IMG/VR virus record: IMGVR_UViG_3300046542_000227
Location: 1-64,000 of that record
Source: a virus
Length of the DNA stretch: 64,000 nt
Strand: one strand, 5' to 3'
Translations under genes and position numbers: made by a program
Shown: in pieces, positions 5,254 through 20,264 of the stretch
Numbering within the stretch: position 1 is the stretch's first letter
Layout: every line of letters starts with the position of its first letter
The notes under the pieces: generated by a model
What the model saw: only the letters and a program-made list of their open reading frames with translations
The model's database searches: none
What the model was told of the DNA's origin: nothing

Positions 5254-8406
<3,153 letters not shown>

Positions 8407-14552: not shown

Positions 14553-14577
14553 AAGCCTCCCCGATTGGGGAGGCTTA
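14553..14577 (-). terminator. Terminator of the fibre operon
   Basis: A perfect 10-bp stem AAGCCTCCCC/GGGGAGGCTT with a GATT loop, followed by TTATAAC on the minus strand, directly after the stop at 14583. The right flank carries TTATGTCG. Confidence 0.85.
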
Positions 14578-14582
14578 TGTCG

Positions 14583-15083
14583 TCAAGTGAAATCGGACAA
14601 CTTGCCCTGAACCATCGTGTTCGCCCACAGAGCGTCCAGCTTAGATTTCTTCACTTCATGCAGACACGAGACACGGAATGCAATCCCGTCACCTGCGTTC
14701 AGGATGTGCTTCTCATCATTGATGGTGATGTTCTGCCCGTCCTTAAGTGCGTATGCCACGATGATCGCAGCACGATCACCCGCATCGACCCAGGTGTTCA
14801 TCAAATCCAAGAACCCGTCATTCTTCGGGAACTCCAGGAAATAACCCACCAAGGCTTTGGTCACCGACGGACGATTGGCGAAAGCATCTTTGAAACGCTT
14901 ACGCTGATCAGCTGTCCACTTGAACCAGCGAGTGTCCTTATAGACGCTCAGGTTCTCAGCGACGTTGGCGCCCACACGCCGACGCATCGACGTAGCAAAG
15001 CGCGGATTGAATTCCGTGTACAGAGCACGCAGGGCTTCAACAGCCTCGGGCTCCAACTTCGGAAGGTGAGCAAATTCGGTCAT
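14583..15083 (-). CDS. Degenerate relative of the neighbouring 2-oxoglutarate oxygenase
   Basis: This 166-residue protein aligns by eye with the C-terminal half of the oxygenase encoded just upstream (15094-15576). KDTRWFKW parallels EARWFHRV, and GQNITINDEKHILNAGDGIAF parallels the strand pair GDGVTVDGEFYPDVLGEG. The distal His is kept in CLHEV (His142). At the site matching His-x-Asp (HID) this protein reads WVD (Trp98-Val-Asp100), and no Arg follows the distal His. It probably cannot bind iron normally. It may be a structural or regulatory derivative. A GGAG ribosome site is well placed, and it is last in the operon. Confidence 0.6.
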   Translation of the reverse strand: MTEFAHLPKLEPEAVEALRALYTEFNPRFATSMRRRVGANVAENLSVYKDTRWFKWTADQRKRFKDAFANRPSVTKALVGYFLEFPKNDGFLDLMNTWVDAGDRAAIIVAYALKDGQNITINDEKHILNAGDGIAFRVSCLHEVKKSKLDALWANTMVQGKLSDFT

Positions 15084-15093
15084 ACGGACTCCG

Positions 15094-15576
15094 TTAATCG
15101 TAAAGGAAGATGGCCACGTAACGCAGCGACTTTACCTGTGGGACTTCATGTGGTGAACTCACGTTGGTAAAGCACACCCCTTCTCCCAACACATCTGGAT
15201 AGAACTCACCATCCACAGTCACCCCGTCACCATCAGCACACAGCGGGATCACCAGATTCTTCCGGTAGCGCTGTACGTCGATATGCTCAGGCATGTAATC
15301 GCCCGGCTTGTATCGGTTGATGATGGCTTCGATAACAGAGAGGCCAGGATACTCGGGTGCCAAGGAGCGCAACAATGCGTTGAACTCCTTAGGTTGCTGG
15401 CGGTCACCGAGGAAGTCATAACTGGCCGCTGTCCCTTGGGTCGTAGGCCTGCTATTGATCTTCACTCGATGGAACCAACGGGCTTCATGCATTTCAGCTA
15501 ACTGTTGTCGCAGGTCGTCACAGACGTCCTTAGAAAACTGTGCCACCTGTAATTTGTTTAGCGCCGTAGGCTTCAT
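15094..15576 (-). CDS. 2-oxoglutarate/Fe(II)-dependent oxygenase
   Basis: With the ATG at 15576 (AAGGTGG upstream) the product is 160 residues. The double-stranded beta-helix core shows the facial triad: YMPEHIDVQRY gives His98 and Asp100, and SPHEV gives His143. Arg152 in SLRYVAIFL is placed to hold 2-oxoglutarate. This matches the 2OG-FeII oxygenase superfamily (prolyl-hydroxylase or AlkB-like fold). The substrate could be protein or nucleic acid and cannot be read from sequence. The gene overlaps the 3' end of 15530-16156 by 47 bases and sits at the end of the fibre operon, so fibre-protein hydroxylation is conceivable. Confidence 0.75.
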   Translation of the reverse strand: MKPTALNKLQVAQFSKDVCDDLRQQLAEMHEARWFHRVKINSRPTTQGTAASYDFLGDRQQPKEFNALLRSLAPEYPGLSVIEAIINRYKPGDYMPEHIDVQRYRKNLVIPLCADGDGVTVDGEFYPDVLGEGVCFTNVSSPHEVPQVKSLRYVAIFLYD

Positions 15577-16156
15577 GCAAACCACCTTCCAGTTGAGCTT
15601 CTTGTGCGGCTGCTTCATCTGCCAACGAGTAGTAGATGTAGTCGCTAGAACCGGCGTAGTATTCTTTACGCAGGTTGTTGGCCGTTTTGACCTCGGTGAC
15701 GTAGTCGTTCATCTCATCGAGAACCTTCAACGCCGCCGCCAGATCAGCATCAGGTTTGTCGCCCAACAGCCCCTGCACCACACGACCGATCTGTTCGATC
15801 GCATTACCGATGTTGTTGACTTGGTTGATCACCGGGTATTGCTTAGTGATCTTCTGCTGAGCCGCCAGATCGAGTTGGCTTTCATACATCACCAGCTCAG
15901 CTTGTTCACGATTGACTACGGTGTAATCAGGGTAAGTACCCCGCACCTCGTCAGTGTGGAAGTCGAAGTTATCGTGCTCTTCATAAATGAAGAAGTCGTT
16001 GTTCAACGTGGCTGGATCTACCCAGCCGATCACCGCCGTGAAGGCACCGCTGATCTTGTTGAACTGCAACAGAACCTTGGTCCCACCGGTTGGCAACGAT
16101 GCGATAGCCGCAGAAACCGTTGTGGTACCAGATGTTGGGATTTGTTCTTCAGACAT
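15530..16156 (-). CDS. Unknown fibre-operon protein
   Basis: This 208-residue protein begins with a Ser/Thr-rich 30 residues and a beta segment (KVLLQFNKISGAFTAVIGWV). A helical middle with many hydrophobic heptads follows (NQVNNIGNAIEQIGRVVQGLL, about 110-130), then an acidic helical C-terminus with YYAGSSDYIYYSLADEAAA. The pattern of a short beta domain plus coiled coil suits a fibre accessory or tail-connector protein. A GGAG ribosome site precedes the ATG and it lies 16 bases after the fibre gene upstream. No family is recognised. Confidence 0.65.
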   Translation of the reverse strand: MSEEQIPTSGTTTVSAAIASLPTGGTKVLLQFNKISGAFTAVIGWVDPATLNNDFFIYEEHDNFDFHTDEVRGTYPDYTVVNREQAELVMYESQLDLAAQQKITKQYPVINQVNNIGNAIEQIGRVVQGLLGDKPDADLAAALKVLDEMNDYVTEVKTANNLRKEYYAGSSDYIYYSLADEAAAQEAQLEGGLHEAYGAKQITGGTVF

Positions 16157-16171
16157 TGTGGATCTCCAGAA

Positions 16172-17515
16172 TTAAACCAGCCAAGCAGCCCAGCCGCCAG
16201 CGGTACGAATAAGGAATTTGACTTCAGGCAGTTGCCAGACAGTGTAAGCCGCCGCTTGCCGGTAACCCATAACCACAGCCTTACAACCCACTGGGTAGGC
16301 ATTGAGGTCAGTGAACCAGGTGTTCAGGTAGTTGATGGCCGCTTGCACGTTGTAGCCAGCCACAGCGGTACGTACATACACGATCGGACTACGGTTGACC
16401 TGAGCATTCATCTCGTTGACGAGAGTCATGTAGCTCTTCCACGTCCCGTTACCCATCAACACAGTACCGGTGTTGGCCACACCACTGCCGAGGGCAGCGT
16501 TAGGGAACAGACCCTGAGTCACCAAGTCAGCCGAAAGACCTGCGTTGCAGTAATTCTTCCAAGCCACCTTAGTGTAGCCAAAGATGTTCAGACTATTTTG
16601 TGCTGGCGTGTCTTTCTGCAGTCGACCCACGAGCGACGTGTTGATCTGAACCTTGGTGTAAGCGTTCACATCCTGAGCACGTACACCGTGTGGGTTGTTG
16701 AAGTTCGAGACGTGTGCGTTGAAGGCTGGCGTCAAGATACTACTGATCGCATTCTGGCCCGACTCAGGCGTCGAGTAGTACGTATCAAGGGTCTGGTTGA
16801 GCGATTCAGACAACAACACCATCCGCCAGTTCTGGATGTTGCTCAGACCGAGCTTCACCTTGTCGTCAGCGTGTGGGTTGTTATAGTCACTGAGGTGGTT
16901 AGTCAGCAGGGTCTTCTCTGCAGCGAGCAAATCCTTAGACTGCTGGAGATAACCGTCAGCGAAGTCTTTGAGTCCCTGCACCATCGCATCATCGTTCGAA
17001 CCCAGCAGATCACGAACCCGGTTCAGCACGGTGATGGTGTTATCCGCACCGTACAGCTGCCAGTATTCATCGTAGTGATCCTTAGGGTTAAACGCCGTAG
17101 GCTTGTTACGAATGTCTTCGTACGCCACCGTGAAGTCAGACGGGTCGAGTGCATCGAGCATGTCCGAGAGTTCATCGGTGTTCAATGCAAAGCTACCACC
17201 GACGGCTTGGTAGTTGAGCACGACAGTGTTAGACACTGCTTCGTTGGTGATCACGATGAAGGCGTAGATTGGCTTAGACGCCAACTTGGACATATCGCGA
17301 TATAGGTAGGTGGTGGTGTAATCCGTGCCCGGTACCAGACGACGGACGCCGTCGAAGATACGCAGGCTGGCATCATTAAAGAAGGCACCAAAGCGAGGAA
17401 TCAGAACACGGTTCTTTTGGCCAGTGACCTTAACCAGTGTTCGACTCTCGTTCTGGACCTTGTTCGATGCCTTGGTGCCCTTAAGGTCCAAGGGCAAAAG
17501 CGTGAGCATGGCCAT
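16172..17515 (-). CDS. Tail fibre protein with shared anchor domain and NPH repeats (A)
   Basis: Three ATGs lie close together; that at 17515 is best spaced from AAGGAG and gives 447 residues. Residues about 8-115 form the N-terminal domain common to this operon (LPLDLKGTKASNKVQ ... IPRFGAFFNDASLRIF ... VVLNYQAVGG). The middle has phage-fibre NPH units, NNPHADDKVKLGLSNIQN and NNPHGVRAQDVNAYTKVQ. The C-terminus has IRTAGGWAAWLV, a plausible tip strand. NPH repeats of this type are common in tail fibres. It shares its anchor with the next two genes, so these fibres probably dock on the same baseplate site. Confidence 0.82.
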   Translation of the reverse strand: MAMLTLLPLDLKGTKASNKVQNESRTLVKVTGQKNRVLIPRFGAFFNDASLRIFDGVRRLVPGTDYTTTYLYRDMSKLASKPIYAFIVITNEAVSNTVVLNYQAVGGSFALNTDELSDMLDALDPSDFTVAYEDIRNKPTAFNPKDHYDEYWQLYGADNTITVLNRVRDLLGSNDDAMVQGLKDFADGYLQQSKDLLAAEKTLLTNHLSDYNNPHADDKVKLGLSNIQNWRMVLLSESLNQTLDTYYSTPESGQNAISSILTPAFNAHVSNFNNPHGVRAQDVNAYTKVQINTSLVGRLQKDTPAQNSLNIFGYTKVAWKNYCNAGLSADLVTQGLFPNAALGSGVANTGTVLMGNGTWKSYMTLVNEMNAQVNRSPIVYVRTAVAGYNVQAAINYLNTWFTDLNAYPVGCKAVVMGYRQAAAYTVWQLPEVKFLIRTAGGWAAWLV

Positions 17516-17525
17516 CATGGGCTCC

Positions 17526-18872
17526 TTAAAGAGGTTGCCAGTTTACGGTGTCGACTTTCACCCAGCATTGCAGACGCCAAGCCGAACGACCTTCCGCCGC
17601 GTTACCTGCGTCCCAGTGACCATCGTAGTAGATCATCACCAAGCACAATGCGCCTGGAGGCCAGATCTGCGTACTAGCCATGGTCGCCTGCAAGATCGCT
17701 GCAATGTTGGCACCGTTAGCACCCTGCAGATACGCAAGCTCTGTACCACGACGGGCGTAGGCGTTGATCACTGCAGCCAAGTCTACAACTTGGTTATCAC
17801 CGGTCAGCGCATGCACCGCACTCAACCCACCAGCCAAGGTCAGACGACGGGTGTCGATACGGCCACTGGTCAGGTTGTTGGCATTCAGGTTAGTCTTGGT
17901 GTAGTTCATCAACTGCGACCAATCAGAACTTTCCAGACGGTAAGTACTAACAGCCGTTGCACCCTTGTCCAGACGGTCAGCCAACCCACCTTCAATTTCT
18001 GGGATGGTGTAGGTGTCCGCTTGAGACGCAGTAACCCGGTGTGGGTTATCCGTACGAGCAACGTGTGTATTAAAGTCAGTGAGGAAGTTCACGTCGAGCA
18101 TTTGTTTGAAACGCTGTACGGTGAGGTAACGCTGCTTGGAGTTAAAGCCAAGCGTAGTTGCTTCAGCCGACGTCACGATCGAGTAGTTCTCAACCGTACC
18201 CAGACTGACCTGTGCTGCCGTTAGGCGGTGTGGGTTATCTGCCGCCAAGTGTTGCTGTAGCTGCAACATCAGGTTATCGAACTCAGCGTTCAGGATATCC
18301 ATCTGGTTGTCGTAACCCAACTGGATCTGCTGGTAAGTACGTGCCGAGATCGCCAGCTTAGCCACGGTGATACGGTTGATCGCTTCAACCATACCTTCAA
18401 AGCCGTAGAGCTCCCACATCGCGTGCAGGTGGCCGCCGACCTCGAACTCATCGGGCTTGCCTTCGATGTTGCGCCACGTCGGGGTACGGGTTGGGTTGAG
18501 CAACCCTGCCGACATAGAAGCAATCGCTGGAATCAAGTCGCAGTACTTACCACCGACCATGCTGGCGTTGACAAACACTTCGGCTGAGACCCGTGGATTC
18601 AGGATCACAATTACCGAGCAGGCTTCGTAGCCGGTTTCGGCTGTAGCTTCAGCGGACAAGCCCACCATCTGGAAGTCTTCATCCGGTACCAGGTCATACC
18701 CGGTCGAATCTTCGATCTCCAGTTGGTCAGTATAGAAATGCCCGTTGTCCAGCACCAGCGTACGGTAAGTCAGACCCGCTTGGTTACGCAGATCGTGATA
18801 CTCACGTTGTACCCGGTTGCGCGGCAGTCGACGTGTAGAGTCGAATGGCAACGCGAAAATGACAGGCGTCAT
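17526..18872 (-). CDS. Tail fibre protein with shared anchor domain and NPH repeats (B)
   Basis: This 448-residue paralogue of the flanking genes has an N-terminal domain that aligns with theirs (ALPFDSTRRLPRNRVQ ... LVLDNGHFYTDQLEI ... VFVNASMVGG). Two NPH repeats follow: DNPHRLTAAQVSLGTVEN and DNPHRVTASQADTYTIPE. The C-terminal third has LCLVMIYYDGHWDAGNAAEG and WRLQCWVKVD, resembling small beta tip domains. An AAGGGG ribosome site lies nine bases before the ATG. Gene spacing of seven and twelve bases to its neighbours indicates one transcript. Differences concentrate in the C-terminal 150 residues. Confidence 0.82.
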   Translation of the reverse strand: MTPVIFALPFDSTRRLPRNRVQREYHDLRNQAGLTYRTLVLDNGHFYTDQLEIEDSTGYDLVPDEDFQMVGLSAEATAETGYEACSVIVILNPRVSAEVFVNASMVGGKYCDLIPAIASMSAGLLNPTRTPTWRNIEGKPDEFEVGGHLHAMWELYGFEGMVEAINRITVAKLAISARTYQQIQLGYDNQMDILNAEFDNLMLQLQQHLAADNPHRLTAAQVSLGTVENYSIVTSAEATTLGFNSKQRYLTVQRFKQMLDVNFLTDFNTHVARTDNPHRVTASQADTYTIPEIEGGLADRLDKGATAVSTYRLESSDWSQLMNYTKTNLNANNLTSGRIDTRRLTLAGGLSAVHALTGDNQVVDLAAVINAYARRGTELAYLQGANGANIAAILQATMASTQIWPPGALCLVMIYYDGHWDAGNAAEGRSAWRLQCWVKVDTVNWQPL

Positions 18873-18884
18873 GGTTTATGCCCC

Positions 18885-20264
18885 TTAGCCAAGAACGAAC
18901 CAACCCGTTTGCGTACGGATACAAGCTCGGAATGAGTTTTGGTAAACCGGGTCAAAACCACCGTTACCATAAACGTGGGTGTCGGCGTTCTGCACCTCGA
19001 AGATCACGCACGTACCCCATGGGTACCAAGCTTCGTTGGCAAAGGTCGTCCGGATGTTCGCCAGGCCAGTGTTGACATCGCCCTGATAACCCGCCCAGTA
19101 GATCTCGTCACCACCGCCCGCGGTTAAGAAGATGAACAAGTCATGCCAGTTCAACCACGAACCCGATGCAATAAAGACGGTCTCAGCCGATGGCGTACCA
19201 ATCCCCAGCAGGTAAGGGTTGACCTGCCCACTGTTGAAGTTAGCCGCATTCAAGTTAGCCCGCATCTCGTAGTAAGCTGCGAGTTGACCGAAGTTAACGG
19301 TAGCCCCTGGGTTAGACGCCGGCTGTCCCATGATCCCCGCTGCAGCGACCGCTGTGCCGTCTACCGGCAGTTTGGTTTCAATACGGGTATCGAAGGTCGA
19401 CTTGATGTAGGTGTTCAGCTGTGCGGCTGTAGGGCCGTGCGTGGTGTAACGCGCATCCAAGTGTTGCTGCAACGGCGTAGTCGCAAACTGGTTCTGCATG
19501 TCAAACACACCACGAGTCGTCAGGTAGTGTATAGCACTGGTACCAGCTTTGGCGGTTGGAGTATCAGCCACCGGATAGTTCACCACCAAGTTCAAGCCGA
19601 TGTCGGCCTTGTCGAGGTTGTGTGGGTTGGCATGGTCGTTGACGTGTGCACCGATCTGTCCAGTAAAGCGTGCCATGAATGCATGGTAGCGATCACGGAT
19701 GTCTTTACGGGCTACGTCTTCTGCCACACCATCACCCGAGGTAGTAGCTGCAGTGAGGCGCTCTACTGCCGAGTTGAGGTTACCGTAGTGTGGACGTGAC
19801 CACAGTTCTTCCTGTAGCTCACCGGGTTGCCACTGCGACTCATCACCGATAAAGCCTGCCCATGCTGGCGGGGTATTAGCCGGTAGCGTTTGCAGGTAAG
19901 CGATGGTGTCGTCTTCTACGGTCAGAGAGAAGGCATAATCAGCACCCACCAACTGACCACCCAACAGAACATAGTCGGTGATCGTTGGCTTGAGGATAAC
20001 CACAGCCGAACAGATCTCAATGCCGACATAAGCACTGGCGTCCAGATGTTTGTAGGTGGCGATATAGTCGACGCGCTCGGTCAACAGTTTAAAATTCTTG
20101 TCGTACACTTTGAGGCTTGGGGTATAGAAACCCCCTTGCGAGAATGACACAACCCGGTACGGAGTATTGCCCCGTGCCAGTAGGAGGTGCTTCTCACCGG
20201 ACACCAAGTTGGTCGGGCTCCGGCCCGTAAGATCCAACGGGTACTTGGAGATTACCTTGGCCAT
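18885..20264 (-). CDS. Tail fibre protein with shared anchor domain and NPH repeats (C)
   Basis: This 459-residue protein carries the same N-terminal anchor (KYPLDLTGRSPTNLVSGEK ... SFSQGGFYTPSLKVYD ... VLLGGQLVGADYAF). A helical middle follows with one clear NPH unit (ANPHNLDKADIGLNLVVNYP), and the C-terminal region includes GSWLNWHDLFIFLTAGGG and a final RACIRTQTGWFVLG. The last line resembles the ending of paralogue A (IRTAGGWAAWLV), so the tip strand is shared. GGAG lies six bases before the ATG. The gene follows a strong hairpin at 20288, so its level may differ from that of the genes upstream. Confidence 0.82.
   Translation of the reverse strand: MAKVISKYPLDLTGRSPTNLVSGEKHLLLARGNTPYRVVSFSQGGFYTPSLKVYDKNFKLLTERVDYIATYKHLDASAYVGIEICSAVVILKPTITDYVLLGGQLVGADYAFSLTVEDDTIAYLQTLPANTPPAWAGFIGDESQWQPGELQEELWSRPHYGNLNSAVERLTAATTSGDGVAEDVARKDIRDRYHAFMARFTGQIGAHVNDHANPHNLDKADIGLNLVVNYPVADTPTAKAGTSAIHYLTTRGVFDMQNQFATTPLQQHLDARYTTHGPTAAQLNTYIKSTFDTRIETKLPVDGTAVAAAGIMGQPASNPGATVNFGQLAAYYEMRANLNAANFNSGQVNPYLLGIGTPSAETVFIASGSWLNWHDLFIFLTAGGGDEIYWAGYQGDVNTGLANIRTTFANEAWYPWGTCVIFEVQNADTHVYGNGGFDPVYQNSFRACIRTQTGWFVLG

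What the first reader, a model, noticed from the sequence alone, without database searches (positions are those of the whole stretch)
14583..15576. Active oxygenase beside a paralogue that has lost its iron ligands
The product of 15094-15576 has the HxD...H...R set of 2-oxoglutarate oxygenases. Its downstream neighbour aligns in the C-terminal half but reads WVD in place of HID and lacks the Arg. A catalytic-dead partner next to an active one could be a regulator or a structural subunit. Linkage with tail-fibre genes raises the idea of fibre hydroxylation.
Basis: partly seen in the sequence, partly recalled or inferred. Interest (0 to 1): 0.55.

Follow-up and report, generated by a model that had tools for sequence, protein, structure and literature searches.

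The report
Phage oxygenase with inactive sister protein
Next to its tail-fibre genes this giant Pseudomonas-type phage carries an iron-dependent oxygenase and a sister protein of the same fold that has lost the key iron-binding histidine, and the pair, with a third gene, keeps turning up beside the same fibre-tip domain in different kinds of phages, which suggests (but does not yet prove) that phages chemically modify or mature their adhesin tips.

Summary
Window 15094-15576(-) has the full HxD...H...R set of a 2-oxoglutarate/Fe(II) oxygenase; its neighbour 14583-15083(-) has the same predicted fold but Trp for the first ligand His and no 2OG Arg. D100 and the distal His remain in the window protein, so 'lost its iron ligands' overstates it. 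They are orthologues of phiKZ gp137/gp138 and come with gp136 in the order gp136-gp137-gp138 in 10 of 10 named phages and 45 of 47 IMG/VR contigs, the other two being cut by contig ends. In 42 distinct gp138-type sequences the Trp, the distal His and a second Trp never vary; in 45 readable gp137-type sequences all ligands, the Arg and NxY never vary. The cassette lies directly behind a fibre gene in phiKZ-like phages, in a T4-type Otagovirus and in further contigs of other kinds; these fibres share a C-terminal tip domain. Best reading: gp137 is a protein hydroxylase, gp138 its non-catalytic partner, gp136 an adaptor, acting on the fibre tip. Fold, paralogy, inactivation, co-inheritance and tip linkage are shown by computation; complex, activity and substrate are inferred. 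The common public label 'DNA endonuclease' for gp137 does not fit its predicted fold.

The parts
15094..15576 (-). gp137-like 2OG/Fe(II) oxygenase, 160 aa; H98, D100, H143, R152 and N87-x-Y89 present
   Evidence: orthologue of phiKZ gp137
14583..15083 (-). gp138-like inactive paralogue, 166 aa; W98 in place of the first ligand His, L152 in place of the Arg, H142 kept
   Evidence: orthologue of phiKZ gp138
15530..16156 (-). gp136-like third cassette gene, 208 aa (phrog_13209, function unknown); overlaps the start of the oxygenase gene by 47 bases; proposed adaptor or chaperone (inference)
15277..15285 (-). codons of H98-I99-D100 of the oxygenase
14784..14792 (-). codons of W98-V99-D100 of the paralogue
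16172..17518 (-). tail-fibre paralogue directly upstream of the cassette (phrog_2163 'virion structural protein'); its last ~90 aa are the shared tip domain
17526..18872 (-). second fibre paralogue with related C-terminal tip domain
18885..20264 (-). third fibre paralogue; tip domain with the GNG motif (VYGNGG)
14553..14576 (-). terminator-like hairpin (10 pairs, -20 kcal/mol, z -4.8) followed by TTTTATAA just after the paralogue: the fibre-cassette unit probably ends here (inference)

Best explanation
A three-gene fibre-tip maturation cassette. gp137 is a catalytically competent 2OG/Fe(II) oxygenase of the protein-hydroxylase type. gp138 arose from a common ancestor by duplication, had its metal site changed by an invariant Trp, and now serves as an obligate non-catalytic partner, forming a heteromer with gp137 that shapes or completes the substrate site, as has been proposed for TlxI with TlxJ. 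gp136 brings the pair to the newly made fibre or helps the fibre fold. The substrate is the C-terminal tip domain of the adjacent fibre(s), possibly at its conserved Asn-Gly loop ([G/S]NG) or its P-x-G turn; the product is a hydroxylated, correctly folded adhesin. Shown by computation: fold, paralogy, loss of the first ligand His and of the Arg in gp138, full conservation of the active site in gp137, constraint on both genes, strict co-occurrence, linkage to one tip domain in several phage backgrounds. Inferred: complex formation, enzymatic activity, substrate, role of gp136, effect on host binding.
For: gp137: H98, D100, H143, R152, N87 and Y89 in 45 of 46 distinct sequences, the 46th being cut by a contig end before them; model closest to a Shewanella oxygenase (3dkq, Z 15.8), with PiuC, P. 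putida prolyl-4-hydroxylase, PHD2 and ALKBH structures about 1-2 Z lower. gp138: W98, H142 and W153 in 42 of 42 distinct sequences; fold of prolyl hydroxylases (PHD2 Z 14.6; P. putida P4H Foldseek E 6e-8). Both under constraint: NG86 dN/dS 0.13 and 0.18 for gp138 (two of three pairs computable), 0.09-0.15 for gp137 (three pairs), with saturated dS. Order g136-g137-g138 in 122 of 131 loci (121 on the + strand, the window's own L011 on the other); 5 more (2 contigs) have it with an extra gp137-type gene behind, and 4 (2 contigs) are cut by contig ends. In 50,697 phage records gp137 was found in 72 with each of two queries and gp138 in 72, 72, 72, 57 and 0 with five queries. Tip domain, phiKZ-type set of 49 without L060/L061: against Otagovirus-type tips E 1.2e-7, third contig group 5.6e-5, both pooled 1.2e-6, L060/L061 4.1e-7, L041 1.3e-4; three controls 0.13-0.64. 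The Otagovirus-type tip protein of L062 also hits the C-terminal end of the phiKZ fibre family phrog_2163 (E 0.0098). [GS]NG in the last 80 aa of the directly upstream gene in 17 of 17 loci outside the Pseudomonas phiKZ-like group against 16 of 198 downstream ORFs.
Against: No experiment and no complex model: heterodimer folding was not available. Homologous neighbours need not touch. The Asn-Gly and P-x-G candidates were chosen after seeing the tips; the fibre copy nearest the cassette lacks the NG motif in most phiKZ-like loci, where it sits in a sister copy. The AlkB-like NxY...HxD strand (ALKBH8 is the best PDB sequence match, E 2.4e-4) leaves a nucleic-acid substrate open. Fibre genes evolve by module exchange, so linkage can also mean that the cassette hitch-hikes with the tip.
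Confidence: 0.45

Rival explanations
1. Non-enzymatic fibre-assembly module: gp138 and perhaps gp137 act as chaperones or scaffolds that fold or trimerise the tip, the metal site of gp137 being structural or regulatory.
For: Position directly behind fibre genes, where fibre chaperones often sit (recalled); gp138 has no catalytic set yet occurs as strictly as gp137; cassette products not noted in the 201phi2-1 virion.
Against: gp137 keeps every residue of a working 2OG oxygenase, including the Arg and NxY, in all 45 readable distinct sequences, which a pure scaffold would not need.
Confidence: 0.2
2. Collagen-type hydroxylase: gp137/gp138 hydroxylate Pro or Lys in the collagen-like fibre encoded nearby (window 5254-8406, 1050 aa).
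For: The window protein has collagen repeats (Pfam Collagen 3.5e-14) rich in G-D-K; pattern hits for 9 or 7 Gly codons at triplet spacing occur in 17 of 17 records of the Pseudomonas phiKZ-like type that were tested (hits were not each checked for an open frame); the gp137 model also matches lysyl hydroxylase LH3 (Z 13.2).
Against: 12 of 32 tested cassette carriers gave no hit even with 7 Gly codons: Astolliot (complete record), L060/L061 (231 kb each), L063 (183 kb) and eight contigs of 19-102 kb, which are fragments. Of the other-type carriers with hits, L062's record has one collagen-type and one Gly-Gly-rich hit, L095's and L096's are Gly-Gly-rich. The gene directly next to the cassette is the tip-domain fibre, not the collagen-like one.
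Confidence: 0.12
3. Nucleic-acid enzyme of the AlkB kind (repair or base modification), the fibre linkage being accidental.
For: NxY nine residues before HxD and ALKBH8 as best PDB sequence match; Pfam 2OG-FeII_Oxy_2 is the best family for the window protein (E 0.0011, below the curated cut-off); public label 'DNA endonuclease'; a DNA-repair role has been suggested for cyanophage 2OG oxygenases (PMC3037559, passages).
Against: Synteny with fibres in several phage backgrounds; the second Arg of the AlkB motif RxxxxxR (recalled) is absent, residue 158 being Leu; a nuclease does not fit the predicted fold.
Confidence: 0.1
4. gp138 works alone as a binding protein (for example for 2OG, a sugar or the host receptor) and only shares ancestry and operon with gp137.
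For: Its own nearly invariant pattern RxGxN...SxY and GFLDxM..W has no counterpart in gp137; three of 30 members have a weak cupin match (best E 0.093).
Against: It was not found without gp137 in any locus not cut by a contig end.
Confidence: 0.1

Closest known systems
TlxI/TlxJ (and TlxA/TlxC), fungal heterodimeric 2OG oxygenases (PDB 7VBQ; review PMC12141560, passages read)
   Same: Two homologous proteins of one gene cluster, one catalytic, one lacking the Arg that binds 2OG and proposed to hold its partner in a preferred conformation. 7vbq is among the Foldseek matches of gp138.
   Different: TlxIJ modify a small meroterpenoid; here the pair is phage-borne with a third gene and a fibre, and the first ligand His is an invariant Trp. 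No complex shown here.
OGFOD1/Tpa1 (PMC4396695, passages read)
   Same: A catalytic DSBH domain next to a DSBH domain without metal site, acting on a protein (Pro62 of uS12).
   Different: One chain with two domains in eukaryotes; here two separate genes and unknown substrate.
Bacterial and viral prolyl-4-hydroxylases, PHD2
   Same: Fold of both proteins; HxD...H...R set in gp137.
   Different: Sequence similarity is weak (Pfam below cut-off); substrate unknown; gp138 cannot be catalytic in this way.
Cyanophage 2OG-Fe(II) oxygenases (PMC3037559, PMC12774648, passages read)
   Same: Same fold among the BFVD matches; widespread phage genes of unproven function.
   Different: tblastn with gp137 of the window or of contig L035 found only Pseudomonas phage records in 50,697, so gp137 is a separate subfamily at that sensitivity, found here only with gp138 and gp136.
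phiKZ gp137 orthologues as already annotated
   Same: At least one record (phage Churi, OM718002.1) already calls gp137 '2OG-Fe II oxygenase', and UniProt names the Psa21 protein 'Fe2OG dioxygenase domain-containing'.
   Different: gp138 is 'hypothetical protein' in the records seen; its kinship to gp137 and the tip linkage are not in those annotations.

Membership tests
2OG/Fe(II) oxygenase superfamily (gp137) | HxD...H iron triad and 2OG-binding Arg | tested here: met
   45 of 46 distinct sequences, the other cut before them by a contig end
2OG/Fe(II) oxygenase superfamily (gp137) | double-stranded beta-helix fold | tested here: met
   model pLDDT 92.9; Z 15.8 to 3dkq, all 50 rows shown at Z 13.2 or more
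2OG/Fe(II) oxygenase superfamily (gp137) | Pfam curated cut-off | tested here: not met
   window protein 19.6 bits against 31.2 for PF13532; 25 of 32 members hit PF13532 at E up to 0.1, best 9.1e-5. A sensitivity limit rather than a defining residue
2OG/Fe(II) oxygenase superfamily (gp137) | 2OG-dependent oxidation | not testable with these tools
   needs purified protein
2OG/Fe(II) oxygenase superfamily (gp138) | same fold | tested here: met
2OG/Fe(II) oxygenase superfamily (gp138) | complete iron triad and Arg | tested here: not met
   first His is Trp in 42 of 42 distinct sequences; Arg at position 151 in 4 and at 152 in 4 of 42; so kin by descent, not a functional oxygenase of this kind
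AlkB subfamily | NxY before HxD and RxxxxxR at the end (motifs recalled) | tested here: inconclusive
   NxY in 45 of 45 readable, second Arg absent in the window
Prolyl/lysyl protein hydroxylases | hydroxylation of a protein side chain | not testable with these tools
   fold match only
Heteromeric active/inactive 2OG oxygenase pair (TlxIJ kind) | physical heteromer | not tested
Heteromeric active/inactive 2OG oxygenase pair (TlxIJ kind) | one partner lacks 2OG/iron residues and is encoded beside the active one | tested here: met
DNA endonuclease (public label of gp137) | a nuclease fold | tested here: not met
   the predicted fold is the oxygenase fold

The most novel reading that the evidence does not exclude
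A transferable phage system for post-translational hydroxylation of adhesin tips: an oxygenase, its pseudo-oxygenase partner and an adaptor that move between different kinds of phages together with one fibre-tip domain, so that the receptor-binding end of the virion carries an oxygen-dependent modification.
Probability: 0.38. Interest if true: 0.85.

Novelty: new variant of a known kind. Interest (0 to 1): 0.6.

Why it matters
phiKZ-like phages are model jumbo phages and therapy candidates (recalled), yet gp136 and gp138 have no assigned function in the records seen and gp137 carries a 'DNA endonuclease' label in several of them. If the cassette modifies fibre tips, it would be a dedicated protein-hydroxylation system for a phage virion, would suggest a function for part of the many phage 2OG oxygenases, and would mean that studies expressing fibres alone may miss a needed modification. 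It would also be a compact natural example of an oxygenase kept together with its own inactive copy.

Tried and rejected
Register of the lost ligand: FLD(91-93) was considered as the true HxD position because D93 is nearly invariant (41 of 42) and L060 reads GHLD.

gp136: no useful Pfam match in 11 members, no PDB sequence match at E up to 0.1, PHROG of unknown function in all four copies tested. NCBIfam and PADLOC gave nothing useful for the cassette (one weak PADLOC '2OG' match, E 0.019). No PDB sequence match below E 0.29 for gp138, and none for two of the fibres.

Bacterial homes: genome-contig scans with A4 and A2 found no relative; these are pattern scans and can miss distant members. 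The divergent gp138 of L092 found no phage record. The promoter and terminator consensus scan was no better than shuffles; the hairpin after gp138 was found by eye and folded. Of five loci folded, four have it (window, Noxifer, phiKZ, L062), but in phiKZ no run of T follows, and L035 has none.

Tip domain: carrying it from one contig group to the others by hmmsearch failed (9 hits, all of that group). Single-pair profile comparisons were mixed (third group-Otagovirus 6.4e-5, third group-w18885 6.8e-4, but third group-L060 0.024, third group-phiKZ last copy 0.065, w18885-w17526 0.21; best control pair 0.015). The pooled test had two faults: L060/L061 were members of the phiKZ set they were compared with, and one stray window ORF had slipped in. 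One search repeats it without them and is the one quoted; the results stayed (1.2e-7 to 1.3e-4, controls 0.13-0.64).

Literature: ten searches; three found no paper, the others were seen only as their top listings, plus passages of six papers. None listed described phiKZ gp136-138 or hydroxylation of phage fibres by such a pair; open-licence papers only, so this does not show that nothing is in print.

Full report
What the window is. The window lies in a 267,320-base IMG/VR virus record. Its nearest named relative is Pseudomonas phage Noxifer, 78% DNA identity over 34% of the queried 4.7 kb. The finding covers the orthologues of phiKZ gp137 and gp138. Three tail-fibre paralogues (16172-20264) and gp136 lie upstream; a terminator-like hairpin follows gp138 directly.

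The observation. Both proteins exist as described and the key codons were read from the sequence. gp137-like has H98, D100, H143 and R152. gp138-like reads W98-V99-D100, keeps H142, and has Leu at the place of the Arg. Pfam sees gp137 only weakly (PF13532 E 0.0011, below the curated cut-off) and the window's gp138 not at all; of 30 gp138 members three have a weak cupin match. The link between the two was tested in three ways. Profile-profile comparison gave E 3e-4 and 5e-4 (probability 31-39%), with control pairs at 0.32 and 0.49. The gp137 profile found gp138-type proteins of Otagovirus-like contigs L095 and L096 nearly full length at E 2.6e-6 and 1.9e-6, and its alignment puts WV(G/D) on HID and Leu on Arg; two of six gp138-type proteins in that test were not found, nor did the gp138 profile find gp137. 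The structure models, both with mean pLDDT near 93, list nearly the same elements in the same order. The gp137 model matches the PhiPA3 gp138 orthologue in BFVD with TM 0.72 both ways, and the gp138 model matches the gp137 orthologue of Psa21 with TM 0.61/0.66.

The fold. gp138 resembles prolyl hydroxylases: PHD2 Z 14.6 over 142 residues, rmsd 2.7, and P. putida P4H at Foldseek E 6e-8. The heterodimeric oxygenase TlxIJ is also in that list. gp137 resembles a Shewanella oxygenase (Z 15.8, rmsd 2.7, 152 aligned), PiuC, P4H, PHD2 and ALKBH5/6. By sequence its profile finds ALKBH8 (E 2.4e-4) and a chlorella-virus P4H (E 0.005). Rows within 1 Z are ties, so no subfamily is claimed.

The family. Ten named phages and 120 IMG/VR loci from five scans were collected. 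By hand count the IMG/VR loci come from 47 distinct contigs, some of which are the named phages again or share identical loci. Of 131 loci in all, 122 show g136-g137-g138 in that order on one strand (121 on +, the window's own L011 on -). Five more (two contigs) show it with an additional gp137-type gene behind gp138. Three loci (one contig) start inside gp137 and one ends inside it. So neither oxygenase-type gene was seen without the other except where a contig ends. In the phage collection (50,697 records) gp137 was found in 72 records with each of two queries; gp138 in 72 with three queries, in 57 with the divergent L060 query and in none with the L092 query. All records are Pseudomonas phages. 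Only part of each list was shown, so identity of the sets of 72 was not checked row by row. Two pattern scans of bacterial genomes found none.

Conservation. Among 46 distinct gp137-type sequences (one cut short), N87, Y89, H98, D100, H143 and R152 are present in all 45 that reach them. Among 42 distinct gp138-type sequences, W98, H142 and W153 are present in all, Y48 and L92 too, D93 in 41 and D100 in 11; an Arg stands at 151 in 4 and at 152 in 4. The placing of W98 in the divergent L092 needs a two-residue insertion in the HMM alignment. NG86 dN/dS is 0.13 and 0.18 for gp138 and 0.09-0.15 for gp137 among the window, L012 and Noxifer; dS is saturated and one gp138 pair could not be computed, so these are rough. 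gp138 is thus not a decaying gene.

Linkage to fibres. In the phiKZ-like phages the cassette follows fibre paralogues (two or three within the fetched flanks; the 201phi2-1 record names five). Astolliot, a 173-kb Otagovirus with T4-type baseplate and head-completion genes around the cassette, has the same three genes, as do further contigs with quite different fibres (the group around L035 I called 'marine' in notes and scripts, but no call gives its habitat). By PHROGs the upstream proteins of L035, L088, L092 and L094 belong to various tail-fibre families, L060's to the phiKZ fibre family phrog_2163, L062's only to the end of that family (E 0.0098), and L041's to structural or unknown families. 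Their last 60-90 residues are alike. With 49 phiKZ-type tails (L060/L061 and one stray ORF removed) the comparison gave E 1.2e-7 to Otagovirus-type tips, 5.6e-5 to the L035 group, 1.2e-6 to both pooled, 4.1e-7 to L060/L061 and 1.3e-4 to L041; controls 0.64, 0.13 and 0.56. A [G/S]NG motif occurs in the last 80 residues of an upstream fibre in 40 of 42 hand-picked loci, which include some phages twice; both misses are Noxifer, whose third fibre, outside those flanks, has it. It is in the directly upstream gene in 17 of 17 loci outside the Pseudomonas phiKZ-like group (L060/L061 counted there), against 16 of 198 downstream ORFs and 11 of 117 cassette ORFs. The motif was noticed after the fact and the loci are not independent.

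Architecture. gp136 overlaps the start of gp137 by 47 bases and gp137 ends 10 bases before gp138; Noxifer has 47 and 10, phiKZ 50 and 8. A stable hairpin follows gp138 in the window, Noxifer, phiKZ and L062, not in L035; in phiKZ no run of T follows it. Fibres and cassette probably form one transcription unit (inference).

Mechanism. gp137 has all that a 2OG oxygenase needs. gp138 cannot bind iron and 2OG in the normal way. Two precedents show what an inactive copy can be: TlxI, which lacks the Arg that binds 2OG, dimerises with TlxJ and is proposed to hold it in a preferred conformation (PMC12141560, passages), and the metal-free C-terminal DSBH domain of OGFOD1 (PMC4396695, passages). By analogy gp138 most likely forms a heteromer with gp137. 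The constant neighbour is a fibre-tip domain, and the cassette proteins carry no virion note in 201phi2-1 while most neighbours do, so they most likely act on the tip during assembly. Whether the action is hydroxylation (favoured, because the active site is intact) or folding help is open. A collagen-like fibre lies in the same window (5254-8406; Pfam Collagen 3.5e-14), and Gly-triplet patterns hit 17 of 17 Pseudomonas phiKZ-like records tested; in all 20 of 32 cassette carriers were hit and 12 were not, eight of the 12 being fragments. fMGyn-Pae01's fibre is also described as collagen-like (PMC11877940, passages). Since Astolliot, L060, L061 and L063 lack such runs, collagen is a possible additional, not the general, substrate.

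Known and new. 2OG oxygenases are common in phages and their function is unsettled: DNA repair has been suggested for cyanophages (PMC3037559, passages), and Phold reports many EGLN3-like phage proteins (PMC12774648, passages). gp137 is already named an oxygenase in at least one phage record (Churi). The fixed trio of oxygenase, inactive paralogue and gp136 tied to one fibre-tip domain was not met in the ten literature searches made (top listings and passages only). I rate it a new variant of a known kind: known fold, known principle of active/inactive pairs, new setting and composition.

Noticed in passing
window 15094-15576 and records NC_004629.1, NC_041994.1, NC_062582.1 and others: gp137 orthologues are labelled 'DNA endonuclease' (phrog_2297) although fold and residues are those of a 2OG oxygenase; a cyanophage 'DNA endonuclease V' (ACG-2014b) is among the fold matches, so the label may have spread by mistake.
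   Followed up: partly
window 5254-8406 (-): 1050-aa collagen-like fibre protein with interrupted Gly-X-Y runs rich in G-D-K and a fibritin-like C-terminal match.
   Followed up: partly
L060:2243-4468, L061: Cassette with a longer gp138 (insert before the distal His) and a second gp137-type gene behind it, both gp137 copies with intact ligands; L060 gp138 reads GHLD where L061 reads GFLD.
   Followed up: partly
L003, L009, L010 (PhiPA3, D6, PS119XW): Annotated gp137 starts are too far downstream: the similarity begins well before them, overlapping gp136.
   Followed up: partly
L035:7475-8305, L017:7528-8379, L041:7544-8383: ORFs that read like glycosyltransferases lie about 3 kb behind the cassette; read by eye only.
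   Followed up: no
window 14553-14576 (-), L001:4011-4030, L002:5951-5970, L062:4968-4987: Stable hairpin right after gp138 in four of five loci folded; a T-rich stretch follows in the window, Noxifer and L062, not in phiKZ.
   Followed up: yes
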